64,000 bases of DNA from an uncultured Dehalococcoidia bacterium. Its GTDB lineage: Bacteria; Chloroflexota; Dehalococcoidia; Lucifugimonadales; UBA3495. The position numbers and the translations under genes were made by a program. The DNA lies in contig OY282494.1 in NCBI GenBank assembly GCA_958296385.1, forward strand, positions 913,416-977,415, read 5' to 3'. Shown here piece by piece: positions 4,966-38,880 of the stretch (positions are counted from its first letter, which is position 1; every line of letters begins with the position of its first letter). A model generated the notes under the pieces. It had not been told where the DNA came from and did not search any database. It saw only the letters and a program-made list of their open reading frames with translations.

Positions 4966-5625
4966 TTGACTATTTTTGACTGGCCGGCGCGGATGGCGCA
5001 GATGGCCGAATTTGTTGGCTTTACCGACGACGACCTGGCGTTGGTGCGGGAAAGCGGGCCGATTTTGCTGGCCCGGGCCGACGAGCTGACGTCGGCGGTG
5101 TACGAGTATCTGATGAAGTTTCCGGCTACGGCGCGGTTTTTTCTGACGCCGGAGGGGGACGTTGACGAAATCCGGCTGGAACGGCGCAAGCACAGTCTGG
5201 CCCGGTGGCTGACGCACAGCATTGACTTTCGGATTGACGAGCAGTTTCCGGTGTTTCTGCTGGCCATCAGCGTGGTGCACAGCAACCCATCGCTGGAGCG
5301 GGGGTATCTGGGGTCGGTGCCGGCGCGGTTTATGATTGGCACGATGTCCTTCGCGCAGACGGCGATTGCGTCGGTGCTGTCTGAGGAAATGGCTGACCCG
5401 GTGCGGGTGTTGCAGACATCAATGGCTTGGAACAAATTGCTGATGCTGCAACTGGACGTTTTGCTGGCCGGTTATGTCAACGAAACGCCGGTGCCGGCGA
5501 CGGAGATGCCGGGGCAGAATGACAGCGACGGAACGCCGGAGGGCGCGGAGGCGGAAGGGATGCGGCAGGTGCTGACCAATATACTGGACGGCAATCGGGA
5601 AAACGGCACAGCACAAGGCGAATAA
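4966..5625 (+). CDS. protoglobin-domain protein
   Basis: A 219-residue, all-helical protein matching the protoglobin (globin-coupled sensor globin) domain: FVGFTDDDLALVRESGPIL near the start, YEYLMKFPATARFF, and RRKHSLARWL with the likely proximal haem histidine, followed by FLLAISVVHSN. Protoglobins bind haem and O2, CO or NO. There is no fused signalling domain, so this is a stand-alone sensor or gas-binding globin; the last 45 residues are polar and probably disordered. The frame opens at TTG 4936, but TTG 4966 has GGAG five bases upstream and suits the promoter at 4899-4927; ATG 4993 is another possibility. It ends 11 bases before the dehydroquinase-like gene, so the two are probably co-transcribed. 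Confidence 0.75.
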   Translation: MTIFDWPARMAQMAEFVGFTDDDLALVRESGPILLARADELTSAVYEYLMKFPATARFFLTPEGDVDEIRLERRKHSLARWLTHSIDFRIDEQFPVFLLAISVVHSNPSLERGYLGSVPARFMIGTMSFAQTAIASVLSEEMADPVRVLQTSMAWNKLLMLQLDVLLAGYVNETPVPATEMPGQNDSDGTPEGAEAEGMRQVLTNILDGNRENGTAQGE

Positions 5626-18454: not shown

Positions 18455-18791
18455 GGCTGCTTCCCCGGTTGCGTCGCTGCCATTTGCGCTGGATACTCAG
18501 CCATTCGGATTTCTCGACCCACGACGGGCTGGGAAATTCTTTTATTCCTGCCTCAATCAGCCGGGGACGAATACGCCTAATCAGGGAGCCGGTCCAGCCG
18601 GGGTCGAGATTTTTCTGGTCGCCGTCATAGACTATGGTGATGGTGAGGTAGGTTTCGCCAGTGGCGTCGGGGCCGAATTCATCGACGTCCTCCACCACCC
18701 GGATGGGGTCAAACACGAATTCGCCGGCAAAGCGTTCCTCGATGGTCTCGCGGACGATGGTTTTGACTATTTCATCTCGCTCTAGCGTCAT
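18441..18791 (-). CDS. hypothetical partner of the HEPN protein
   Basis: A 116-residue acidic protein upstream of and overlapping the HEPN gene. It has alternating strands and helices (MTLERDEIVKTIVRETIEER, TYLTITIVYDGDQ, GSLIRRIRPRLIEAGI, PSPSWVEKSEWLSIQ). I recognise no family; it lacks the GSxxxxxxDxD motif of MNT nucleotidyltransferase antitoxins. Its position first in a two-gene overlapping unit with a HEPN protein suggests an antitoxin or adaptor role, by inference only. Confidence 0.65.
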   Translation of the reverse strand: MTLERDEIVKTIVRETIEERFAGEFVFDPIRVVEDVDEFGPDATGETYLTITIVYDGDQKNLDPGWTGSLIRRIRPRLIEAGIKEFPSPSWVEKSEWLSIQRKWQRRNRGSSLDSA

Positions 18792-18830
18792 CAGGGCGTC
18801 TCCATTGCCAAAGTTTGCGTGGTTGGTATT

Positions 18831-20117
18831 TTACACCCGTTCCGGTTCCTGCTGCCAGGATGGGGTGGGGGCGTTGTCGTCTGCGTCATCGTCGTCTTGC
18901 CAGGTGTCTGTTATGGCGGCGAGGCTGGGGGCGGTTAGGAATATGGGGACGGATGGGGGTAGTTGGGATGCTATTGGGCCGGGGGGGCCGTCGCCGGCGT
19001 AGAATACGATTACACGGTGGCCGCGGCGGCGGATGTCGGCGACTTCCTGGGCTACTGCCGGGGTCAGGATGGAGGTTACGAGGGCTACGGTTGAGGCGGC
19101 GGGCAGGATGGGTATTTCGGCGCGCAGTACGGCCGGCAGTTCGGCTACCCAGAACGGGCCGGCCATCGCGAGGGCTTCGAGGGTGGATTCCAGCTGGAGG
19201 CGTCCGCTGCCGGTGGGGACGGCGAGCCACTTGCTGGAGTAGGACGCGACGGCGTTGCTGACCAGGCCGAATGAGTAGCCCTCGCGGTGGGCGTAGTCGG
19301 CTACGGAGGCGGCGACGGTTACGGCGCGCTCGAACAGGCGGCGGTTGCTGCCCTGCCACGCAGCATCGCCGGTGCGCGCGTTGAGGGCGATCAGCAGATG
19401 CCGGGTGGCCGCCGGCTCAAAGACGCGGGTTTCCAGCTTGCCATGGCGGGCGGTGGCTTTCCAATCGATGTGCTTTAGGGGGTCGGAGGGCAGGTAATCG
19501 CGCAGGCCGACGAAACGGCTGGGGTCGTCCTGGATGCGGCGGCGGCCCCGGGAATCGCCGAGGGGCTGCTCCCATGGAATCATCAGACGCTGCAAGTCCA
19601 CGATGCGGGGATAGACCAGCAGGTAATCTACATCGGACACGTGCTGCTCGGCGGCGCTGAGTCCGAAAAGGTCGCCGCTGCGGAGGCGGGCGGGGCCGAT
19701 GCGGTGGTTGCCCCGGGTGCGGCAGCGGATGCGGTAACGCCAGGTAACCCGCTGGTAGGGCAGCAGCGAGGTGGTGATGCGGTGGTCAAGGACGGCCTCG
19801 GCGCCGATGCCGCGCTGGTAGGTGCCGCCGGTTTGCAGCCCCATGGGAAAGGCATCGGATATATCAAGCCAAATCATGGGCAGCAGCTTGCCGTTGTCAA
19901 CGGTGATGTAGTAATCGACTAAATCGCCGATGAAAGCGCGGCGGCGGGCCAGGCGGCGCTGGTAGGTGACGCGGCGAAAGGCGAAACGCGGCCAGTGCTT
20001 GCCGGTGAGCCAGATGAGCAGCACGAGGACGCCGACGACGATGAGCAGCAGCTGGCTGGCCAACAGGCCGGCCAGAATGAGGATGGCGGCGGCGATTACC
20101 CAAAGGTCGCTGAGCAT
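18831..20117 (-). CDS. DUF58 domain protein
   Basis: A 428-residue protein with two N-terminal membrane helices (AAAILILAGLLASQLLLIVV and VGVLVLLIWLTG, residues 9-39), a beta-rich middle, and the DUF58 signature FVGLRDYLPSDPLKHIDWKA followed by KLETRVFEPAATRHLLIALN, a von Willebrand A-like fold. DUF58 proteins pair with MoxR AAA ATPases and DUF4129/transglutaminase proteins in envelope-associated complexes of poorly known role. No MoxR ATPase is in the window. The DUF4129 gene lies downstream, after the HEPN pair. Confidence 0.88.
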   Translation of the reverse strand: MLSDLWVIAAAILILAGLLASQLLLIVVGVLVLLIWLTGKHWPRFAFRRVTYQRRLARRRAFIGDLVDYYITVDNGKLLPMIWLDISDAFPMGLQTGGTYQRGIGAEAVLDHRITTSLLPYQRVTWRYRIRCRTRGNHRIGPARLRSGDLFGLSAAEQHVSDVDYLLVYPRIVDLQRLMIPWEQPLGDSRGRRRIQDDPSRFVGLRDYLPSDPLKHIDWKATARHGKLETRVFEPAATRHLLIALNARTGDAAWQGSNRRLFERAVTVAASVADYAHREGYSFGLVSNAVASYSSKWLAVPTGSGRLQLESTLEALAMAGPFWVAELPAVLRAEIPILPAASTVALVTSILTPAVAQEVADIRRRGHRVIVFYAGDGPPGPIASQLPPSVPIFLTAPSLAAITDTWQDDDDADDNAPTPSWQQEPERV

Positions 20118-27401: not shown

Positions 27402-28286
27402 TTATTCGGGCGGGTTGGTAAGCTGATTGCCGTTTTGGACATTGACGTAGGTTACGCCCAAGTGTTCGGCGGCGGTCTTGACGATTGGGGCAATGTCCGT
27501 GCCGGCGACGATGGGGATGGCCTGGCCGTTGAGATTGCGGGGCTGGTATTCGCGGATAACCTGGTCTAGCAGGGCCGCCCGGTCGGCCGCGCGACGCACG
27601 TCATCGCCATCAACCTGGTACGATGCTTCTACCACCAGGCACAAAGGCTGGTAGTTGGAATCGCGGCGGGCGTGGATATAGATGTCGGCGCGGCTGAGCT
27701 CGCGCGACTGGTCGAGGGTGATGACGCCGGCCTGCCGGGCCGCGGCGGCGATGTTCCTGATGTCCCGATTAGATACGATTTCCTCATCGCGCAGGCCGAG
27801 GGATGCGGCGAAAATTTCGGGATTGCGCTTGCAGTAGAGTTCCAGACCCCAACCTTTTAGGGTGGAGACGTCCTGATTAGTACGGTCTTGCGCTTGCGTC
27901 AGTTTTGCGATGTTGGCGCGGATTTCGGCCATCTCTTTATTGCGCTCCTCCTGGGCAATGCGCATTGCGTCCATTTCGCGTTCGTGCCAGGCGATGCGCG
28001 CGGCCAGAGATTCGTCCATTTCGGCCATATTTTTATGGTGCCAGGCGGCGCGCTCATCATCACGAACGCGCATTTCAGCCATTTCCCGGTCGTGCAGGGC
28101 AGCGTGTTCCTGTTCGCGGGCCCGTATCTCGGCGATGGCGCGGTAGTGCCGGGCGGCCCTTTCCTCTGCTCGGACGCGCATTTCGGCGATGGCGCGGGAG
28201 TTTTCCGCGACGTCTCTCGCAGTGTTCTCCTGCCTGGCGCGCAATTCGTCAAGATTCATCGGTTGGGGATCGTTGGGCGTGGTCAT
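27402..28286 (-). CDS. coiled-coil protein with C-terminal nuclease-like domain
   Basis: A 294-residue protein. Residues 20-135 are a charged coiled coil with repeats of about 17-18 residues (RAIAEIRAREQEHAALHDRE, MAEMRVRDDERAAWHHKNMA). The C-terminal domain has SRADIYIHARRDS, CLVVEASYQVDGDDVRRAAD and IPIVAGTDIAP; the strand-loop DIYI...VVEAS resembles a PD-(D/E)xK core with Ser where Lys is expected. Similar coiled-coil plus nuclease-like proteins (DUF3782 type) are common in Chloroflexota and cyanobacteria and have no known role. It starts 32 bases downstream of the DNA methyltransferase stop. Confidence 0.65.
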   Translation of the reverse strand: MTTPNDPQPMNLDELRARQENTARDVAENSRAIAEMRVRAEERAARHYRAIAEIRAREQEHAALHDREMAEMRVRDDERAAWHHKNMAEMDESLAARIAWHEREMDAMRIAQEERNKEMAEIRANIAKLTQAQDRTNQDVSTLKGWGLELYCKRNPEIFAASLGLRDEEIVSNRDIRNIAAAARQAGVITLDQSRELSRADIYIHARRDSNYQPLCLVVEASYQVDGDDVRRAADRAALLDQVIREYQPRNLNGQAIPIVAGTDIAPIVKTAAEHLGVTYVNVQNGNQLTNPPE

Positions 28287-28318: not shown

Positions 28319-29149
28319 CTATGGTAATGGTAGCAGATTTGGCGGGGTGCAGTGGGCCAGGCGCTTTTGCATTACTTGGATTGCTTCGGGGTTGTTGTCG
28401 ATTAGGGTGAAGTTGCGGCCCTCGAGGTGGGCGGCTTGGCCTAGTGTGCCGCTACCGGCGAAGAAGTCGAGGAGGTGGTCGCCGGGGTTGGAGTGTACGC
28501 GGACTATGCGTTGGATTATGTTGAGGGGTTTTTGGGTGGCGTAGCCGGTTTTTTCTTTGCCGGTTACGATGGTGTGCCACCAGACGTCGGTGGGGGTTTT
28601 GCCGCGGGCGGCTTTCGCTTTGCCGACCAGGCCGGGGGCCAGGTAGGGGATGCGGTCGATGGCGTCGTAGTTGTAGGTGTAGTTGGCGGGGTCTTTGGCG
28701 TACCAGAGGATGTTGTCGTGCTTGGCGGGCCAGCGGGTTTTGGGGCGGCCGCCGTAGTCGTAGGCCCAGATGATTTCGTTGATGAACGACGGGCGGCCAA
28801 AGATTTCGTCCAGCATTATTTTGCAGTAGTGCACTTCCCGGTAATCGACGTGGAGAAAGAGGCTGCCGTGTTCGTCCAGCACGCGGTAGGCTTCAGCCAT
28901 GCGGGGGCGCAGGAAGCCGATGTAGTCGTCAAAGACGTCGGGGTATTCGCTGCTGCCGACGATTTGGGTTTGGTAGCGGCGGCCCTGGAATCCGGTGCGG
29001 TCGCCGTCGTCGTCGCGGACGACGCGGATGCGGGTGCGGGACTGGGCCTTGCCGGTGTTGAAAGGGGGGTCGACGTAAATCAGACGGAATGACGCATCGG
29101 GCAGCGTGCGCAGGACATCCAGATTGTCGCCGAGTATAATCTCGCCCAT
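28319..29149 (-). CDS. site-specific DNA methyltransferase (beta class, N6-A or N4-C)
   Basis: A 276-residue enzyme. Motif IV DPPF is near the N-terminus (RLIYVDPPFNTG, residues 23-34) and the SAM-binding motif I DFFAGSGTLGQAA is near the C-terminus, the order of beta-class amino methyltransferases. EIIWAYDYGG and TQKPLNIIQRI are also family features. No cognate restriction gene is evident alongside; the coiled-coil protein downstream is a weak candidate. It may be an orphan regulatory methyltransferase. ATG 29149 is within a short divergent spacer shared with the CoA-transferase gene. Confidence 0.9.
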   Translation of the reverse strand: MGEIILGDNLDVLRTLPDASFRLIYVDPPFNTGKAQSRTRIRVVRDDDGDRTGFQGRRYQTQIVGSSEYPDVFDDYIGFLRPRMAEAYRVLDEHGSLFLHVDYREVHYCKIMLDEIFGRPSFINEIIWAYDYGGRPKTRWPAKHDNILWYAKDPANYTYNYDAIDRIPYLAPGLVGKAKAARGKTPTDVWWHTIVTGKEKTGYATQKPLNIIQRIVRVHSNPGDHLLDFFAGSGTLGQAAHLEGRNFTLIDNNPEAIQVMQKRLAHCTPPNLLPLP

Positions 29150-30600: not shown

Positions 30601-32211
30601 ATGGCGGTTGATGCGATCAGTTTGGAAGTTTTTAAGAATATGTTCATCTCCGTTTCGGAGGAGATGGGGGTTGCGCTGCAACGGACTAGCTACTCGACCA
30701 ATATGAAGGAGCGGCAGGATTTCTCGTGCGCGCTGTTCAATCCGGGGGCGGAGATGGTGGCGCAGGCGGCGCATCAGCCGGTGCATCTGGGGGCGATGCC
30801 GGCGTCGGTGCAGGCGGCTTTGCAGACGTTTCCCCGGGGGCTGCGGCCGGGGGATATTGTCATCCTTAATGACCCCTATCTGGGCGGGTCGCACCTGCCG
30901 GATATTACGCTGGTGGCGCCGGCTTACATTGACGCTGACGGCGGCGGGAAAGAGCTGATTGGCTACGTGAGCAATCGGGGGCATCATTCCGACGTGGGCG
31001 GGATGGCGCCGGGTTCCATGCCGCTGTCCACGGAGCTTTATCAGGAGGGGCTGATTATTCCGCCGCTGAAACTGACGCGGGGCGGGCGCATCAATCACGA
31101 AGTCATTGCGCTGATTTGCCGCAACTCGCGCACGCCGGACGACCGGCAGGGCGATTTGGCGGCGCAGATTGCGTCCATACGGGTGGGCGAAAAGCGGCTG
31201 ACCGAAATCGCGGAACGCTACGGCCTGGCCGAAACGCACGAGCACATGGACGCGCTGCTGGACTACTCGGAGCGGCTGACGCGGCGGGCGATTGCCGACA
31301 TTCCCGACGGGGCGTATCGGGTTACCGACTATATGGACGACGACGGTTTGAGCGAGGAGCCGGTGGCCATCAGCGTTACGGTGACGGTGGCCGGGGAGCG
31401 GATGACGATAGACTTTACGGGGACGGCGGCACAGCGGCCGGGGTGCATCAACGCGCCGCGGGCGGTTACGGTGTCGGCGAGCCTGTACGTGGTGCGGTGC
31501 GTGGTGGGCAACGAGGCGCCGGCGAATCAGGGCTGCCTGCGTCCGGTGGAGGTTATAACGCCGCGGGGCAGTCTGGTGGACCCGCAGCCGCAGCGGGGGG
31601 TTGCCGGCGGCAACGTGGAGACATCGCAGCGCATCACCGACGTGCTGCTGGCGGCGATGAGCCAGGCGATGCCGGGCAAGATTCCGGCGTCGTCGCAAGG
31701 CACGATGAACAACATGATTATCGGCGGCCACGACATATCGCGCGACAAGCCTTACGTGTATTACGAAACGATTGGCGGCGGGATGGGCGCGCGGCCGGAC
31801 AAGGACGGCATATCGGGCATCCACACGCACATGACCAACACGATGAACACGCCGGTGGAGGCGCTGGAGTTTGCGTTTCCGCTGCGGCTGCGGCGTTACG
31901 CGCTGCGGCGGGGCTCCGGCGGCGACGGCTTGCATCGGGGCGGCGACGGGCTGGTCAGGGAAGTGGAGTTTTTGAGTCCGGCGCGGGTTACGGTGCTGTC
32001 GGAACGGCGTCGGTTCTCACCGCCGGGCTATCACGGGGGGCATCACGGCGAACACGGGGAGAACGTGCTGCTGCGGGGGGGCTACGAGGAGGTGATACTG
32101 GCGGGCAAGGAAACGCTGGACGTGGACGCTGGGGACGTGCTGAGCATCCGCACGCCGGGCGGCGGCGGCTGGGGCGCGCCAGAGCATGGACACGGGCATG
32201 AGCATCGCTGA
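30601..32211 (+). CDS. hyuB: hydantoinase B/oxoprolinase family protein
   Basis: A 536-residue protein of the N-methylhydantoinase/acetone carboxylase B family. It starts with [20 protein letters not shown] and has [53 protein letters not shown] and [13 protein letters not shown], then [11 protein letters not shown] and [17 protein letters not shown]. These enzymes work with an ATP-binding HyuA partner to open hydantoin or oxoproline rings. No HyuA is present on either side. The open frame upstream to 30478 runs through a palindromic repeat and is not part of the protein. Confidence 0.92.
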
Positions 32212-32905
32212 CGCCGGCAGCATCGCCGAGGTGCAGCGGCTGGTGGTGAACTGCCGGGCCTGTCCGCGTCTGGTGGAATGGCGGGAGGAAACGGCGCGGG
32301 TCAAGCGGCGGATGTACCGGGATGAGGACTACTGGGGTCGTCCGCTGGCGGCGTTTGGCGATCCGGCGGCGCGGCTGCTGATTGTCGGGCTGGCGCCGGC
32401 GGCCCACGGGGGCAACCGCACAGGGCGGATGTTCACCGGCGACCGCAGCGGGGACTGGCTGTTTGGCGCGCTGCACCGGGCGGGGTTCGCCAATCAGCCG
32501 GAATCGGTGCGCGATGGCGACGGGCTGGAACTGCGGGGCGCACTGATTACGGCGGCGGCCCGCTGCGCGCCGCCGGCCAACAAGCCCACGTCCGGCGAAC
32601 TGGCGGCCTGCCGTCCGTATATGGCGCGGGAGATTGAGCTGCTGGACGACCTGCGGGCGGTGGTGGCGCTGGGGCGCATTGCCTTTGACGCTTTTTTGCG
32701 GGTTTATAACAGCATGGGGCGGGCGCTGCCGGAACGCAAGCCGGCCTTTGGGCACGACGTGGCAACGCCGCTGCCGGCGGGGGGGCCGCTGCTAATCGCA
32801 TCCTACCACCCCAGCCAGCAAAACACGCAAACGGGGCGGCTGACGGTGGCGATGCTGGACGCCGTGTTCGCGCGGGCGCGGGCGGCTTGCGGGGGGGACG
32901 GCTAG
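32186..32905 (+). CDS. udgB: uracil-DNA glycosylase, family 5-like (UdgB)
   Basis: A 239-residue DNA repair enzyme that removes uracil. Motif 1 region GLAPAAHGGNRTGRMFTGD (about residues 70-88) is typical of UdgB, and SYHPSQQNTQTGR forms the C-terminal DNA-binding motif. Cysteines in CRACPRL near the start and in RCAPP could ligate the 4Fe-4S cluster of this family. It overlaps the hyuB end by 26 bases. Its last 4 bases overlap the convergent MazF-like gene. A decayed duplicate of its 3' third lies at 36457-36639. Confidence 0.9.
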   Translation: MDTGMSIADAGSIAEVQRLVVNCRACPRLVEWREETARVKRRMYRDEDYWGRPLAAFGDPAARLLIVGLAPAAHGGNRTGRMFTGDRSGDWLFGALHRAGFANQPESVRDGDGLELRGALITAAARCAPPANKPTSGELAACRPYMAREIELLDDLRAVVALGRIAFDAFLRVYNSMGRALPERKPAFGHDVATPLPAGGPLLIASYHPSQQNTQTGRLTVAMLDAVFARARAACGGDG

Positions 32906-33228
32906 AACAGACTGCGGACGGCGGCGGTAATCTCGGCCAGCTTGGAATCCGTTAGCCGGCCGGTGGTTTCCTCAAACAGACTTTCGGACAAAGTGTGCAG
33001 CCGGCCCGGACGGGCCCAGCTGCTGCGATCCAGCTCGCCAGATTGCATATCATCCTGCGTAATTGGGATGTCCCCGGAACGGCGGCGCCGGCGGCTGGTC
33101 ATTCCACATAGTATGCGGTCTCCCATACCAACCTCAGCCAGGACTACTGCGGGGCGGGACTTTCGACCGCTCAAATCGGTGTATGGGAAAGGGACAATTA
33201 CTATATCTCCGACCACGCCGCCTCCCAT
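32902..33228 (-). CDS. MazF/PemK-like toxin
   Basis: A 108-residue protein with the MazF/PemK/CcdB-like fold: GDIVIVPFPYTDLSGRKSRP at residues 7-26, AVVLAEVGMGDRILCGMTSR, and a C-terminal helix DSKLAEITAAVRSLF. Members are ribosome-independent mRNA endonucleases. Its start overlaps the end of the restriction-modification gene by 28 bases, so the two are translated together. No MazE-like antitoxin gene is present; the upstream enzyme takes the usual antitoxin place. Arg-rich RRRRRS near residue 45 is unusual. Confidence 0.8.
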   Translation of the reverse strand: MGGGVVGDIVIVPFPYTDLSGRKSRPAVVLAEVGMGDRILCGMTSRRRRRSGDIPITQDDMQSGELDRSSWARPGRLHTLSESLFEETTGRLTDSKLAEITAAVRSLF

Positions 33229-36200
33229 TCCGGGTCTTCCGGCTCACTGAACCATTGCGACAGGCCCAGCATTGCCCATTCGTGCTTATCCCGGTCGCCG
33301 AACACTATCAGCTTACCGTTTTTCCAATACGCCATATCGTCCACCACGTCCATTGTTTGGACGCTTACGGTGCAAACTCGGCGCAACAAGTCAATTACCT
33401 GTTCTTTGTGGTTGGCGAAGCGGTAGGTGTTGAAGTTGGCGGCTATTGTTGGGTCGCGGGGTTTGCGTTCTTTGTATTGGTCGAGTACCCATTCCAGTGC
33501 GGAGCGGGCGCCGAGGCGGTATTGCCAGGCGGATTCGGGGATGCCGGCCAGGGTAGTTTGTTCGTCGATGGTGATGGTGTTGTCTTGCTGGTTGGCACGC
33601 AGAATGGGGCGGGTGTTGCTGCCGTTGCGGGTTTTGGCGGTAGGGGTGTCGCGGCGTTCCAGGGGGTAGGGTTCGGCGGACTCGAAGCCCAGGTGTAGGT
33701 CAAGCAGCTCCCGGCCTACGTTGGCCCACAGGTCAAAGTCATGGTACAGGGGCAGGCGGGGGAACTCCCGCAGCAGGTCAACGCCGTAGTCGTAGCGATA
33801 TACCGGGTCGTGGAGGACGGCGTAGGTGTAGGCGAAAATGTCCTCGGCGGTGATACCGTCGGGATACAGCTCGTCAAAGTGGCGGCGCCAAGCTTTGCGG
33901 TAGTGCTCGTTAATCAGATTCAGGCCCCAATCGGTGATGTTGCTGACGCGCTTTCCGTCGGGCGTGTAGCGGTAGAGGGGGAGGCATTGGGTATCGCCGG
34001 CGAAATGGAAGTCAGTAAGACGGTCGGCTGCTAAAACATAGAACTGCTTTCCGTTAGTGCAAAAGTTTATGACCTGGTTAGACTGCTTCAAGTCCGGCCC
34101 AAACATTTCGTAATGATTGCGGGTAAGTCTGTCATTCATTGCCGGTTCCGCAAAATGGCGTAGCAGAATAAACGGACGGTATAGCGACTCTATGCGGTGT
34201 GCGTCGTTATAAACTATCCGTTCACCACGGCGAAATCGGTCACGCAGCGTGCTACTCCATTTGATAACAGGGTCATACGATTCACTTTTATTGTCCACGA
34301 GTTCGTTGTAGGCGTCAGCAAAGAAAAGTGCTTTAGCCCGGAGATTATGGACATCAAAATCGTACACCCATTCATCGCGATTACTCTTTGCACCATTAGA
34401 AAACAGCCCGAATACCGCCTGTTCATCATCGGCAGTTTTAGCACGTTTGGTTTGCCGGCTGACCAGCGGCAGCAACCGCTCAAAGTCTCCGTTGGATTGG
34501 TTGAGCCAATCGTTCCTCTTGTCCGGCGTGATTGCCTCAAACGCAATACTATCCAGATTGGCCTCCCGCAGATAGGCAAGTTTGTCCGTCGCCAGTTCGT
34601 CGTCCTCACGCCGGGCGTAGTGAATCTCGCACTGGTCAGATTTTGACTTATCCCGCACCAGAAAGGTGATAGCCACGCCGGTCTGTATGCCAAAGACATT
34701 ATGCTTTGTGCCGGATATTTTGGGATTGCGGCGCACATCCGAACCGAGGTCAAGGATATAGATGTCAGTGAACTCGTTGGTGGACACTTGCCGGAATCCG
34801 TCATCCTGCCGACCGTCAATATAGGCCCGATTGGTGATAAAGGCGATAATCCCGTCATCCGTCAATCTGTCCGATGCCCAGCGGATGAACCGCTTGTACA
34901 TATCGTATTGGTGTGTCTTTTGCGCCGTGCCGGATGCAACGTAAGTATCTCGGATGCGCCGGTCAATCTCCGGATAGGCGCGGTTGGGGTTAAAGTCGTT
35001 CCAGTTGGTTTGACTGTCGTTGTAGGGTGGGTTGCCGATGATTACGCTGATGCTTTTTTCGTTTTGTTCCTGGACGCGCAGCCAGTTTTCCTCGGAAAGG
35101 GCGCCGAGGTTGAAGGCGGCCTGGCGCTGCACGGCGCCGCCGGTGGCGCCGGCCTGCTGCCAGTCCATGTTGTCCAGAGTGTCCACAAAGCAGAGGTTGG
35201 GAAACTCCAGGTATTGGCCGGTGCGCTCTTTGTAGGTGTACTCAATGTTGAGGTTGGCGATGTAGTAGGGCAGTATGGCGACTTCGTTGGCGTGGAGTTC
35301 GTGGCGATATTTGTACTCCAAGCGGTGGGCGGGCAGATGATTGATGAGGCCGGTTACAAAGGCGCCGGTGCCGGTGGCGGGGTCGAGTATTTGGACGTTG
35401 TCGTCGGCCAGGGTACGGCCAAAGTGTTTCTGGAGCAGCCAGTCGGCGCCCCGGATGATAAAGTCCACCACTTCGTTGGGGGTATAGACGACGCCCAGGC
35501 GGTCGGCGGCGGCGGGGTTGTAAGCCTGGTAAAAGTCCTCGTAGATGGCCTTGAGGAACTGCTGCTTTTCGAGATAGTCGGCGATTTCGTCGGCGGCGCG
35601 GCCGATGGCGCCGTAGTAAGCGCGCAGGCGGTCGATGGCCTGACGGCGCACGTCGCCGGTAAAGAAAGTGTGTTCCAGAGCGTCCAGCTGGCGGGCGACG
35701 TTGTTCTCGCGGTGGAACTGGTCCTCGGCGAACACGCGCAGGAAAATATCTTTGGTGAGGATGTGCTGCAACAGCATCTCGCGTACATCGGCATCAGAGA
35801 CTTCCGGGCTGATGGTTTGGCGGCACAAGGCCAGGAAACCGGCGGCGGCGGTTTGGTAGCCGGCGTTGTGCTGCTCGGCATCGGACACGGCGGCGCGCAG
35901 GTTGTCCAGCACGGCGGGCAAGTCGGCGCGGAACTGCTGGCGGGCCTGGCGAAACTCGCCGATTTCGGGCCGCTCGTAGTCGAGAAAGCGGCGGATGAGG
36001 CGATGCAGCTCAACGGGGCGGCGCATATCGGCGCGCATGGCCTGGCCGCCGTTTTGGAACAGCACGGCGGTTTGGGAGTCCTCAAAGATGATGTTGTCGC
36101 GGGGGTAGCCCCGGTTGAACTTGGCCTGTATTTCAGCGTCCAGGTCGTCGTGGGAATCCTTGGCCTCCCAATAGCCGCGGGCCATTTTGAGGGAATCCTT

Positions 36201-36401
36201 GACCGTGCCATCGGGCCGGACGCCGGCGCCGGCAAGGACCAGCTCGGCAATCAGGACGAGCTGCTCCTTGTGGCCGGCACAATAGGCAGCCAGGCAATTC
36301 TCAAAAGCGCGGCGGATGCTCTGCTCGTTAGCGGAGCCGCCAAACTCGATGAGCTGCGCCAGCTCCGTATGGTAGCGCACTATGTGGGGGTAAGCGGGCA
36401 T
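33201..36401 (-). CDS. single-chain restriction endonuclease-methyltransferase (type IIG/ISP-like)
   Basis: A protein of about 1,066 residues. The N-terminal region has RGYWEAKDSHDDLDAEIQAK with an ExK nuclease-type core, followed by a helical linker. The middle is an N6-adenine methyltransferase with motif I ILDPATGTGAFVTGL (about residue 345) and motif IV IIGNPPYNDSQ (about 465). The C-terminal 450 residues resemble the specificity domain of type ISP enzymes (RPFILLRHFAEPAMNDR, then FAYTYAVLHDPVYRYDYGVD). The helicase of true type ISP enzymes is absent, so this is closer to type IIG. ATG 36401 is used; a TTG at 36437 is less likely. The region around 34.0-34.9 kb is visibly richer in A and T than the genome around it. 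Confidence 0.88.
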   Translation of the reverse strand: MPAYPHIVRYHTELAQLIEFGGSANEQSIRRAFENCLAAYCAGHKEQLVLIAELVLAGAGVRPDGTVKDSLKMARGYWEAKDSHDDLDAEIQAKFNRGYPRDNIIFEDSQTAVLFQNGGQAMRADMRRPVELHRLIRRFLDYERPEIGEFRQARQQFRADLPAVLDNLRAAVSDAEQHNAGYQTAAAGFLALCRQTISPEVSDADVREMLLQHILTKDIFLRVFAEDQFHRENNVARQLDALEHTFFTGDVRRQAIDRLRAYYGAIGRAADEIADYLEKQQFLKAIYEDFYQAYNPAAADRLGVVYTPNEVVDFIIRGADWLLQKHFGRTLADDNVQILDPATGTGAFVTGLINHLPAHRLEYKYRHELHANEVAILPYYIANLNIEYTYKERTGQYLEFPNLCFVDTLDNMDWQQAGATGGAVQRQAAFNLGALSEENWLRVQEQNEKSISVIIGNPPYNDSQTNWNDFNPNRAYPEIDRRIRDTYVASGTAQKTHQYDMYKRFIRWASDRLTDDGIIAFITNRAYIDGRQDDGFRQVSTNEFTDIYILDLGSDVRRNPKISGTKHNVFGIQTGVAITFLVRDKSKSDQCEIHYARREDDELATDKLAYLREANLDSIAFEAITPDKRNDWLNQSNGDFERLLPLVSRQTKRAKTADDEQAVFGLFSNGAKSNRDEWVYDFDVHNLRAKALFFADAYNELVDNKSESYDPVIKWSSTLRDRFRRGERIVYNDAHRIESLYRPFILLRHFAEPAMNDRLTRNHYEMFGPDLKQSNQVINFCTNGKQFYVLAADRLTDFHFAGDTQCLPLYRYTPDGKRVSNITDWGLNLINEHYRKAWRRHFDELYPDGITAEDIFAYTYAVLHDPVYRYDYGVDLLREFPRLPLYHDFDLWANVGRELLDLHLGFESAEPYPLERRDTPTAKTRNGSNTRPILRANQQDNTITIDEQTTLAGIPESAWQYRLGARSALEWVLDQYKERKPRDPTIAANFNTYRFANHKEQVIDLLRRVCTVSVQTMDVVDDMAYWKNGKLIVFGDRDKHEWAMLGLSQWFSEPEDPEWEAAWSEI

Positions 36402-36456
36402 GGGTATTACGATAGCACGGGGGGGAACGGGGGGCAATTTAGGAAGGCAAGCGGGG

Positions 36457-36639
36457 ATTGCTTTTGACGCCTTTTTGCGGGTCTATGCCGGGCTGGGGCG
36501 AGCGCTGCCGGAGGGCGGGCCGCTACTAATCGCCTGCTAGCACCCCGGCCAGCAAAACGCGCATACGGGGAGGCTGATTGTGGAGATGCTGGACGCCGTG
36601 TTTGCGCGGGGAGGCAGTTGGGGGGTGCGATGGTGTTAA
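36457..36639 (+). pseudogene. decayed duplicate of the UDG gene 3' end
   Basis: The frame from 36457 reads IAFDAFLRVYAGLGRALPEG, GPLLIAC, a stop (TAG), HPGQQNAHTGRLIVEML and DAVFARGG. This matches the C-terminus of the intact glycosylase at 32186-32905 (IAFDAFLRVYNSMGRALPER...GPLLIASYHPSQQNTQTGRL...MLDAVFARAR). It lacks about 13 internal residues and has a premature stop, so it is not functional. It lies on the other side of the MazF and restriction-modification genes from the intact copy, in the same orientation. Confidence 0.85.
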
Positions 36640-36645
36640 AGAATG

Positions 36646-37749
36646 TCAGTCTGTTGGGTGACTGCTAAATGGAAATGCCGGGAACGGCAGGCTGCTGGGA
36701 GGATCTTTTTCTTGTCGGTAATACGACCTAATCGACAAGTCGCACATTACGTAGCCCCAGTTAATTAACCTAGATTTCTCGGCGTCGGTAAAAGCGTTCA
36801 ATCGGGTTCTGACAGAACCAAAATGGTCTTTCCAATCTGGTCTTATCGTAAAAGGGCTCCGAATGGGGTAGTTGCAGATGTCTGTATTTCCGTACCACAG
36901 AGTTCCCTTTTTGTCATTGCTTAGGAATTTGCCCACTATGTCACGCCGTCTGAGGGCTCTGGTCTGTTCTATTGCGGTTTCCATCGGTCGCATTATCCGA
37001 TGATTGAATTGTCTGGCGAACCATTTGCCGGGGGTTGCGTTTAGTGGCGAACTTCCATCGGACACGAGTATCGTCGTACAATCCCGAATGGCATGAATCC
37101 CGAGGTTGTCGTAGGCTCCGCCGTCGGTTAGGGAAACCTTATGTTTCAGATCGTCCCTGTGGAATAGATTGGTGTACTCTGCCTTTACAAATGCGCTGGC
37201 GTCCAAGTCTAGCGTAACGGGCGGAAACGCAGGGGGGAAGGCTGATGACGCAGCGATGGCCTTCGCCAACGCAAGGTAAGGAAGCTCAACGTCGCCGAGA
37301 CGCCAGGTGTGCAGTCCCTTTTTAGATAATGTGCAGTTGCGGCCCGTTTCAATATGCGCCGCGTTGAGTACGAAATCGGGGTAGTCAGGGAGGTCTTGGA
37401 GTTGAAATTCGCCCACGAGATGCTTTCGGTAGATTTGCTCCAGTTTCCAGGTTCCGAGAACCAATCCGAAAAGCACGGCAGTTCGGTCGACGTTACGACT
37501 ACAAAAGTCCCATATCGGGTTAGCAATTTCGTCGTCAAAATTGACGGCGATACCATCGTGAAACTTGAGCTTGGCCCATCGTACAGCCAGCAAACCGGTC
37601 AAAATGGAACCGCCCGATACTGATGAAAACTGACTGATCTCAGGCAGTAACGCCATTTCATTCAGTCGCCAGATGGCCCCGAGGTGAAACAGGGTTGCGC
37701 GGAACCCTCCTCCTGAAAGGGCAATACCCGTTTTGCTTGGTTCTTTCAT
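36646..37749 (-). CDS. patatin-like phospholipase
   Basis: A 367-residue lipid hydrolase. The oxyanion loop is IALSGGGFRATLFHLG (residues 9-24), the nucleophile Ser45 is in SSVSGGSI, and the catalytic Asp is in SLTDGGAYDNLG near residue 210. Patatin domains hydrolyse membrane lipids, and several serve as killing effectors in anti-phage systems. It starts 16 bases after the MBL gene stop, on the same strand. Base composition is more balanced than in surrounding genes, pointing to transfer. There is no signal peptide. Confidence 0.88.
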   Translation of the reverse strand: MKEPSKTGIALSGGGFRATLFHLGAIWRLNEMALLPEISQFSSVSGGSILTGLLAVRWAKLKFHDGIAVNFDDEIANPIWDFCSRNVDRTAVLFGLVLGTWKLEQIYRKHLVGEFQLQDLPDYPDFVLNAAHIETGRNCTLSKKGLHTWRLGDVELPYLALAKAIAASSAFPPAFPPVTLDLDASAFVKAEYTNLFHRDDLKHKVSLTDGGAYDNLGIHAIRDCTTILVSDGSSPLNATPGKWFARQFNHRIMRPMETAIEQTRALRRRDIVGKFLSNDKKGTLWYGNTDICNYPIRSPFTIRPDWKDHFGSVRTRLNAFTDAEKSRLINWGYVMCDLSIRSYYRQEKDPPSSLPFPAFPFSSHPTD

Positions 37750-37765
37750 TTATTCGCTCCGATGC

Positions 37766-38617
37766 TCAGTCAATCAGCACGTCGAGAGTCGGCTTTCGGC
37801 CTCTGGCGCCAGGTTTTACCGTAACTTGGATGGTGCCATCCTTTCGCGTAGTCACACATTTGCGGGGCTGCGTCGTACCGTTTTCTTTATGTACCTTCCA
37901 GCCTTTGGTTACTTTCGTGTACCGGGCCGTTGCACTGGTGTCGCTGGATCTCCCGTCTGAAATGAGCGTAATGCGCGGATGAAAATGGTCAAACAGGGGA
38001 CTGTGAAACCCAGACTCACGTCCGTGGTGGGGGGCAACAAGTACGCGCGTCCCTTTAATCGCGGTTACGAACTTGCGTCGGTTGAGGAGATCCTCCCAAG
38101 AAGGCGGTTCATTGTCCCCTGGAATTAGAATTTTCACCCCACTATACTCAAGAACGGTGACGACACTATGGTTGTTGAGATTGCTCGTAGAGGCTTGAGT
38201 AGATATGAACCTCTGAATTGAAACGCCACCATTGTTCTGGAGCAGAGCGACGTTGTCCTGCGTTCCTACGGGTGTGCTGTACCTGCGTCCGATTTCAAGG
38301 TATTTCTTGATTTTTTGCTCAGCTTCGGGGCTGGGTCTCGGGTTGCTTGCCCTGATGTCGTGTTCTGTGAGATGGCTCGGGATGCTCAGGGTTTTAGGTT
38401 TGAATTCATCGAAGTAGAGAATATCGTCGATGTGGTCCATATGCGGGTGCGTGATGGTCACGTGGTCAAGCCTACGTATCCCGTTCTGCCACAGGTACTC
38501 CAAAGGGCTGAACTCGTCGCCTGCGCCCAAGTCTATGGCGATATGCTTTCCGTTAGGGGTTCGTATGTAGGCAGCGCTACCGTGCTGAACGTTCCACACT
38601 ATGATTTGCAGAGACAT
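37766..38617 (-). CDS. ComEC/Rec2-like MBL-fold hydrolase
   Basis: A 283-residue metallo-beta-lactamase-fold protein. The metal-binding motif HPHMDHIDD (HxHxDH) is near residue 60, a later metal residue is in ILIPGDNEPPS, and VAPHHGRESGF carries a further His pair typical of the soluble ComEC-type group. ATG 38617 has GAGGA at good spacing, so the open frame upstream to 38725 is not used. The C-terminus is basic (KPGARGRKP). It is the first gene of a two-gene unit with the patatin; this MBL subgroup can act on nucleic acids or nucleotides, by analogy only. Confidence 0.82.
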   Translation of the reverse strand: MSLQIIVWNVQHGSAAYIRTPNGKHIAIDLGAGDEFSPLEYLWQNGIRRLDHVTITHPHMDHIDDILYFDEFKPKTLSIPSHLTEHDIRASNPRPSPEAEQKIKKYLEIGRRYSTPVGTQDNVALLQNNGGVSIQRFISTQASTSNLNNHSVVTVLEYSGVKILIPGDNEPPSWEDLLNRRKFVTAIKGTRVLVAPHHGRESGFHSPLFDHFHPRITLISDGRSSDTSATARYTKVTKGWKVHKENGTTQPRKCVTTRKDGTIQVTVKPGARGRKPTLDVLID

Positions 38618-38880
38618 TATTCCTCGCTTTGCCGTAAGACCGTCGAAATTGATGGACGGCACTAACGATCGCTGTGTGCCGATTCGGGGATTCATAATCA
38701 ACTTCCTACGTATTACGCATTTCATCCTCCAACTGGATTTTTGTGAAGATGGGTCTGCCGGTCGAAACGCGCTAGCGCCGACGCAGTTTTTCTGTCGCTG
38801 CTATGGGTTATGCCTGGCTACCCTAGTGTGCTAAAATCGCATCCATTTCATCTTACAGCCTCAAAGGAGATAATTCTACC
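38618..38880. other. intergenic region before the GMC gene
   Basis: No gene is supported. It holds the divergent start regions of the MBL gene and the GMC oxidoreductase gene. A TAAAAT (38833-38838) could be the -10 box of the latter, followed by an AAAGGAG ribosome site at about 38862. Confidence 0.5.

What the first reader, a model, noticed from the sequence alone, without database searches (positions are those of the whole stretch)
32186..36639. Restriction-modification/MazF block bracketed by an intact and a decayed copy of the UDG 3' end
The 36457-36639 stretch is recognisably the C-terminus of the UDG gene at 32186-32905, same orientation, with an internal deletion and a stop. Between the two lie only the MazF-like and type IIG/ISP-like genes. 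This is the footprint expected if a defence cassette carrying its own UDG 3' end recombined into the gene and left the displaced native end to decay. UDG as an integration anchor for restriction genes would be unusual.
Basis: partly seen in the sequence, partly recalled or inferred. Interest (0 to 1): 0.75.

Follow-up and report, generated by a model that had tools for sequence, protein, structure and literature searches.

The report
DNA-repair gene's end anchors defence cassettes
In a genus of apparently sponge-associated Chloroflexota, small toxin-antitoxin and restriction-modification cassettes have landed again and again behind one DNA-repair gene, leaving a broken copy of that gene's tail at several cassettes' far edge, so the tail itself may be the handle by which integrase-less defence genes are gained and exchanged.

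Summary
36457-36610 is a decayed C-terminal copy of the UDG at 32186-32905 (87% over 108 nt, 84% over 56 nt, a 45-nt in-frame deletion, TAG at 36538). Between them lie only a PemK/MazF-like gene and a type ISP restriction-modification gene.

Congeners support a recurrent site. The udg-GMC junction is empty in G009. G002 has UDG-[PIN+antitoxin]-tag-[methyltransferase]-GMC. G004 has UDG-[unknown+PIN]-tag-[PIN+antitoxin]-tag-[methyltransferase]. A Nitrospirae genome has UDG-[MazEF]-tag. UDG loci carry such a 3'-end copy in 7/146 cases against 3/1100 for other genes (p = 2e-5; blind loci 3/142, p = 0.02). ISP+PemK is a mobile pair: G006 holds it elsewhere, again between direct repeats, of another gene's end.

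[quoted passage not shown] Both edges of one cassette coincide in two species, yet tags match each species' own UDG. Import of a foreign UDG end is not demonstrated: the intact 3' part is anomalous, but tag and intact end are sisters. UDG is no general defence hotspot outside this genus.

The parts
32186..32905 (+). intact uracil-DNA glycosylase superfamily gene (239 aa), the anchor gene
   Evidence: PF03167 E=1.4e-28; orthologue in all 13 congeners searched
32678..32876 (+). part of the intact UDG 3' end that recurs as the decayed tag (UDG nt 493-691)
   Evidence: direct repeats D1, D2, blastn
32902..33228 (-). PemK/MazF-like toxin gene (108 aa), no antitoxin gene beside it; stop codon overlaps the UDG stop (CTAG)
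   Evidence: PF02452 E=1e-10; sits beside ISP in several congeners
33201..36401 (-). type ISP (single-chain) restriction-modification gene, about 1066 aa
   Evidence: PF18135, PF22240, PF02384, PF07669; PADLOC REase_MTase_IIG 8e-277; homologues at other loci in congeners
36402..36456 (.). 55 nt between ISP start and tag; right edge of the cassette
   Evidence: sequence; compared with other ISP loci
36457..36610 (+). decayed UDG 3'-end tag: 45-nt in-frame deletion, TAG at 36538-36540
36646..37749 (-). patatin-like phospholipase gene, part of a second insert between tag and GMC gene
   Evidence: PF01734 E=1e-17
37766..38725 (-). MBL-fold hydrolase gene, defence-candidate PDC-M48B
   Evidence: PADLOC PDC-M48B E=3e-91; PF00753
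38881..40434 (+). GMC oxidoreductase: right flank of the variable interval
   Evidence: PF00732/PF05199; 80 bp from UDG in G009

Best explanation
Small defence or addiction cassettes without an integrase (ISP+PemK, PIN+antitoxin, PIN+unknown, methyltransferase-type restriction genes) insert just behind the UDG stop codon together with a copy of the UDG 3' end (32-228 nt), so UDG stays whole and a truncated tag marks the cassette's far edge. Inferred origin: insertion with long target duplication, for example one homologous join in UDG and one illegitimate join upstream of it in the C-terminal coding region. Inferred upkeep and spread: homologous recombination between tag and UDG, which converts tags to the resident sequence and could loop a cassette out or bring another in, so cassettes stack (UDG-A-tag-B-tag-C). 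Shown: the structures, their recurrence, coincident edges, species-specific tags, no recombinase among the identified genes of the analysed intervals. Not shown: any recombination event, direction of transfer, function of the cassettes.
For: Empty udg-GMC site in G009 (80 bp) and occupied sites in G000, G002, G005, G007, G011. Tags in G000, G002, G004 (two). G004 and G002 share both edges of cassette B, and the 67 nt after the tag, although cassette B is only 65% identical (UDG 5' part 91%). Tag sequences group with the resident UDG: G002+G002u 100/99, G004u1+u2 91/91. G007 holds a 62-nt remnant of cassette B. Nitrospirae L088: UDG-MazE-MazF-tag. 3'-end copies: UDG 7/146 vs other genes 3/1100, p=2.3e-5; blind loci only 3/142, p=0.02. 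ISP+PemK recurs at different loci in congeners, and in G006 it is bracketed by direct repeats, mostly confined to that locus, of another gene's 3' end, followed by another methyltransferase-like gene. Differences between tags and intact ends are concentrated at third codon positions (36/56, p=0.007 against my rough estimate of 47% for duplication plus neutral decay), consistent with part of the divergence arising under coding constraint. Precedent: restriction genes inserting with long and variable target duplications (PMC3031569, PMC1643837).
Against: G007 and G011 carry inserts at the site with no tag, and G011's are DctP-type transporter genes, not defence genes. Most other ISP loci show no target-type repeats; those beside G003, G012 and G013 ISP look like dispersed intergenic repeats. 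Vertical inheritance of cassette B with fast divergence plus gene conversion would also give coincident edges and species-specific tags. At 109 other UDG loci the neighbouring gene is not visibly enriched for toxin or restriction families. G049 and G278 copies are simple or near-tandem repeats without a cassette. Third-position and tree tests rest on 32-164 nt per case.
Confidence: 0.5

Rival explanations
1. One reading: the cassette brought a foreign UDG 3' end (Campbell-like single crossover or transformation), which replaced the native end; the tag is the displaced native end.
For: In G000 the intact gene departs from genus-conserved residues at 7/58 sites after the tag's start vs 1/127 before it (p=0.0014, not corrected for 14 genomes; none of the 13 others reaches this level). 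At 24 differing sites the congeners side with the tag at 9, including nonsynonymous ones. Both edges of cassette B coincide in two species.
Against: Tag and intact end in G000 share derived residues absent from all congeners, and are closer to each other (126/150) than to any congener; in G002 both copies are divergent from sister species in the same way.
Confidence: 0.2
2. Pure insertion with long target duplication at each event, independent each time, with no later role for the tag (Kobayashi type); UDG is simply a tolerant target.
For: Variable tag lengths between cassettes; ISP+PemK in G006 bracketed by repeats of another gene's end; published kind for restriction genes (PMC3031569).
Against: Coincident edges of cassette B in G002 and G004 need one event or transfer of the whole unit, after which tags should group by cassette, not by species; UDG enrichment over other genes.
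Confidence: 0.2
3. Site-specific integration: the UDG 3' end is an att site for elements whose recombinase acts in trans.
For: Insertion always at or just after the UDG stop; recurrence across genera and phyla; protein-coding 3' ends are used as att sites by known elements (own knowledge).
Against: Tag starts range from 228 to about 34 nt before the stop, with no common start; no integrase among the identified genes of the intervals; the same ISP+PemK pair uses another gene in G006; no related UDG found in the viral collection.
Confidence: 0.05
4. Ordinary tandem duplication of the UDG end, unrelated to the cassettes, which later landed in between.
For: G049 (193-bp tandem unit) and G278 (near-tandem) show that UDG ends do duplicate without a cassette.
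Against: In G002, G004 (two), G000 and L088 the tag sits at or near a cassette edge, and in the Chloroflexota cases the cassette starts within a few tens of nt of the UDG stop.
Confidence: 0.05

Closest known systems
Restriction-modification insertion with long target duplication (Nobusato 2000; Furuta 2010; described in PMC3031569 and PMC1643837)
   Same: restriction gene without a transposase, flanked by long, variable direct repeats of the target
   Different: one gene (UDG) re-used several times in a genus and once in another phylum; cassettes stack; toxin-antitoxin pairs behave alike; tags homogenised with the resident gene
Homology-facilitated illegitimate recombination and transformation-made partial duplications (PMC3240628, PMC3784515)
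   Same: one homologous and one non-homologous join can insert foreign DNA; transformation can create partial duplications
   Different: laboratory events; no cassette array; not shown in this genus
Integrative elements that use the 3' end of a gene (SCC at rlmH, tRNA-gene islands; own knowledge)
   Same: gene 3' end restored on one side, displaced end on the other; successive elements can stack
   Different: those encode or borrow a site-specific recombinase with a fixed core; none seen here and tag starts vary
Integron cassette arrays (own knowledge)
   Same: modular array of toxin-antitoxin and other cassettes separated by related repeats
   Different: no integron integrase seen, attC folding not tested; repeats are pieces of the host gene

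Membership tests
RM insertion with long target duplication | RM gene flanked by direct repeats longer than ordinary transposon target duplications | tested here: met
   108 nt at 87% + 56 nt at 84% around PemK-ISP; also G006
RM insertion with long target duplication | related genome with a single copy of the target and no insert | tested here: met
   G009 udg-GMC junction with 80 bp and one UDG 3' end
RM insertion with long target duplication | both repeats derive from the recipient's own target | tested here: inconclusive
   tags group with resident UDG in G002 and G004, but the intact G000 3' part is anomalous
Site-specific integrative element | recombinase gene on the element | tested here: not met
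   families found in the window interval and in the G002, G004, G007, G011 inserts include none
Site-specific integrative element | fixed core at the boundaries | tested here: not met
   tag starts range from 228 to about 34 nt before the UDG stop
Integron | integron integrase and structured attC sites | not tested
   no integrase among the families found; attC folding not examined
Type ISP restriction-modification enzyme | N6 methyltransferase, coupler and ISP C-terminal specificity domain in one chain | tested here: met
   PF02384/PF07669, PF22240, PF18135 over cut-off
Type ISP restriction-modification enzyme | N-terminal nuclease and translocase domains | tested here: inconclusive
   no nuclease or helicase Pfam hit for the 1066-aa window protein, which looks short for the full architecture; activity not testable here
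PemK/MazF toxin-antitoxin module | toxin fold | tested here: met
   PF02452 E=1e-10
PemK/MazF toxin-antitoxin module | adjacent antitoxin gene | tested here: not met
   PemK overlaps ISP directly; no gene between, and UDG on the other side

The most novel reading that the evidence does not exclude
The UDG 3' end works as a homologous-recombination docking site for a stackable array of integrase-less toxin-antitoxin and restriction cassettes, each carrying its own UDG tag, so that defence genes can be swapped by ordinary recombination without mobile-element enzymes.
Probability: 0.3. Interest if true: 0.75.

Novelty: new variant of a known kind. Interest (0 to 1): 0.55.

Why it matters
How restriction and toxin-antitoxin genes move without transposases or integrases is an old question; long target duplications are described for Helicobacter restriction genes, but I found no report of one site being re-used this way. 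A single gene whose tail is copied at cassette edges, in several species and in two phyla, gives a countable and testable case: cassette gain, loss and tag conversion can be read from strain collections and rebuilt in a transformable laboratory host. It also gives a simple signature (truncated 3'-end copy at a cassette edge) for finding such sites elsewhere.

Tried and rejected
UDG as a general defence hotspot in bacteria: first downstream genes at 109 other UDG loci show no toxin or restriction family among the commonest 25 (only those 25 were listed), and in the other congener clade a thiolase-type gene follows UDG. Target-type repeats at all ISP loci: only G006; G003, G012, G013 repeats look like dispersed intergenic repeats. 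Other 3'-end copies in 464 kb of the same genome: dispersed repeats, antisense reading frames, and one tandem gene duplication that starts inside the preceding gene. G026 'fragment' is probably the UDG of that genome cut by contig ends, although a Phd antitoxin follows it. Virus route: no related UDG in the viral collection. ComEC is present in all 14 congeners but also in 10 of the 14 control genomes, so it says nothing specific about competence. Literature search for a UDG integration hotspot gave nothing in the held library.
Full report
OBSERVATION. The window holds a 239-aa uracil-DNA glycosylase (UDG) superfamily gene at 32186-32905 (+) (PF03167). At 36457-36610, same strand, UDG nt 493-548 recur at 84% and nt 584-691 at 87% identity, with a net 45-nt in-frame deletion and a TAG at 36538-36540. 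The segment has no further copy in the 3.3-Mb single-contig genome. Between the copies are a PemK/MazF-like gene (32902-33228, minus) and a type ISP restriction-modification gene (33201-36401, minus). PemK overlaps the ISP gene by 28 nt and its stop overlaps the UDG stop in CTAG. Downstream of the tag come a patatin-like gene, an MBL-fold gene matching the defence candidate PDC-M48B, and a GMC oxidoreductase.

RELATED GENOMES. The genus in the genome collection has 14 members. In G009 UDG and the GMC gene are 80 bp apart: the empty site. Other members are occupied. G002: UDG-[PIN+antitoxin-like gene]-tag-[999-aa methyltransferase]-GMC. G004: UDG-[111-aa unknown+PIN]-tag-[PIN+antitoxin-like gene]-tag-[methyltransferase], then the contig ends. 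G005: UDG-[111-aa unknown+PIN cut short]-GMC, where a deletion has removed the end of the cassette. G007: UDG-[NYN]-62-nt remnant of cassette B-GMC. G011: UDG-[two DctP-type genes]-GMC. Cassette letters: A = unknown+PIN, B = PIN+antitoxin-like, C = methyltransferase. In the other clade of the genus UDG is followed by a thiolase-type gene in at least three members (named from sequence, not by a family search).

BEYOND THE GENUS. Nitrospirae RIFCSPLOWO2_02_FULL_62_14 (L088) has UDG-MazE-MazF-tag, the tag being 62 nt at 89%. G296 has two small reading frames between UDG and a 32-nt tag; G278 and G049 have near-tandem or tandem copies without a cassette. With one method applied to every gene, a 3'-end copy within 5 kb downstream occurs at 7 of 146 UDG genes and 3 of 1100 others (p = 2.3e-5). 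One of the three others is itself caused by a UDG tag (G004 PIN). Four of the seven UDG cases were known before the survey; in the blind loci alone it is 3/142, p = 0.02. Families of the first downstream gene at 109 other UDG loci show no toxin or restriction family among the commonest 25, so the defence character is shown for this genus plus L088 only.

THE CASSETTE. ISP homologues occur in 12 of the 14 genomes (the window's own included), in the congeners at other places, and several carry PemK directly after ISP in the same orientation: a mobile pair. In G006, the genome with the closest ISP (78%), the pair lies between direct repeats of the 3' end of a different small gene and its intergenic stretch (blocks of 61 nt at 95% and 45 nt at 96%); the strong copies of this repeat in that genome are at this locus, and a methyltransferase-like gene (named from sequence) follows. 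So the bracket is not peculiar to UDG. Most other ISP loci show no such bracket, and repeats near three of them look dispersed. In a 464-kb sample of the window's own genome no other comparable insertion was found.

WHERE DO THE TAGS COME FROM? Three tests. (1) Junctions: the left edge (UDG stop) and the right edge (GTGTACACCC, then UDG codons at nearly the same place) of cassette B agree in G002 and G004, as do 67 nt after the tag, although B itself is 65% identical against 91% for the UDG 5' part; the following methyltransferases differ (30% over part). (2) Tag trees: G002's tag groups with G002's UDG (100/99) and G004's two tags with each other (91/91), not by cassette. Together these suggest a unit with a fixed edge whose tag is converted to the resident sequence; the tree rests on 118 columns. 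(3) Mosaic test in G000: the intact gene breaks genus-conserved residues at 7/58 positions after the tag's start and 1/127 before (p = 0.0014, uncorrected; 14 genomes tested), and congeners side with the tag at 9 of 24 differing sites. But tag and intact end share GRAL, found in no congener, and are closer to each other than to any congener. Import of a foreign end is therefore possible, not shown. Differences between tags and intact ends fall mostly at third codon positions (36/56), consistent with divergence partly under coding constraint; the 47% expectation used is my own rough estimate.

MECHANISM. Best-supported: origin by insertion with long target duplication, then upkeep and possibly spread by homologous recombination between tag and UDG. 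The first step is a published kind for restriction genes (PMC3031569, PMC1643837); one homologous plus one illegitimate join is a known route (PMC3240628, abstract), and transformation can make partial duplications (PMC3784515). No recombinase was found among the identified genes of the intervals, tag starts vary from 228 to about 34 nt before the stop, and no related UDG was found among viral contigs, which speaks against site-specific integration. No event was observed directly.

VERDICT. A new variant of a known kind: a re-used, stackable site for integrase-less defence cassettes, with the gene's own tail as the likely handle.

Noticed in passing
window 32902-36401; L236, L237, L238, L244, L247, L248, L253, L254: Type ISP gene followed by a PemK-like toxin gene in the same orientation, overlapping or about 45 nt apart, at different loci in congeners and without an antitoxin gene between: a recurrent ISP+PemK pair.
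   Followed up: partly
L241, L242, L240, L249 upstream of the ISP start: In G009, G005, G012 and G002 the reading frame just before ISP looks by eye like the end of a PIN-type toxin, so ISP may travel with different toxins.
   Followed up: no
window 36646-38725: Patatin-like gene beside an MBL-fold gene matching defence candidate PDC-M48B; possibly a second inserted defence module between tag and GMC gene.
   Followed up: no
L233 (G000:C1:2770001-2790000), about 18716-19954 minus: Tandem duplication of a gene whose duplicated unit begins inside the 3' end of the preceding gene, leaving a 62-nt copy of that end.
   Followed up: partly
L053 (G010) downstream of UDG and thiolase-type gene: Reading frames that look like a C5-methyltransferase and a Vsr-type nuclease lie behind the thiolase-type gene, another restriction-type insertion near the same place.
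   Followed up: no
window 36436-36448 region and L236 about 5540-5552: The 9-mer AAATTGCCC (read in ISP direction) lies at the right edge of the cassette in G000 and at the left edge in G006; chance not excluded.
   Followed up: no
window 28319-29149 minus: DNA methyltransferase (PF01555; PADLOC type II methyltransferase 1.5e-139) a few kb before the UDG, beside a gene of unknown family at 27402-28286.
   Followed up: no
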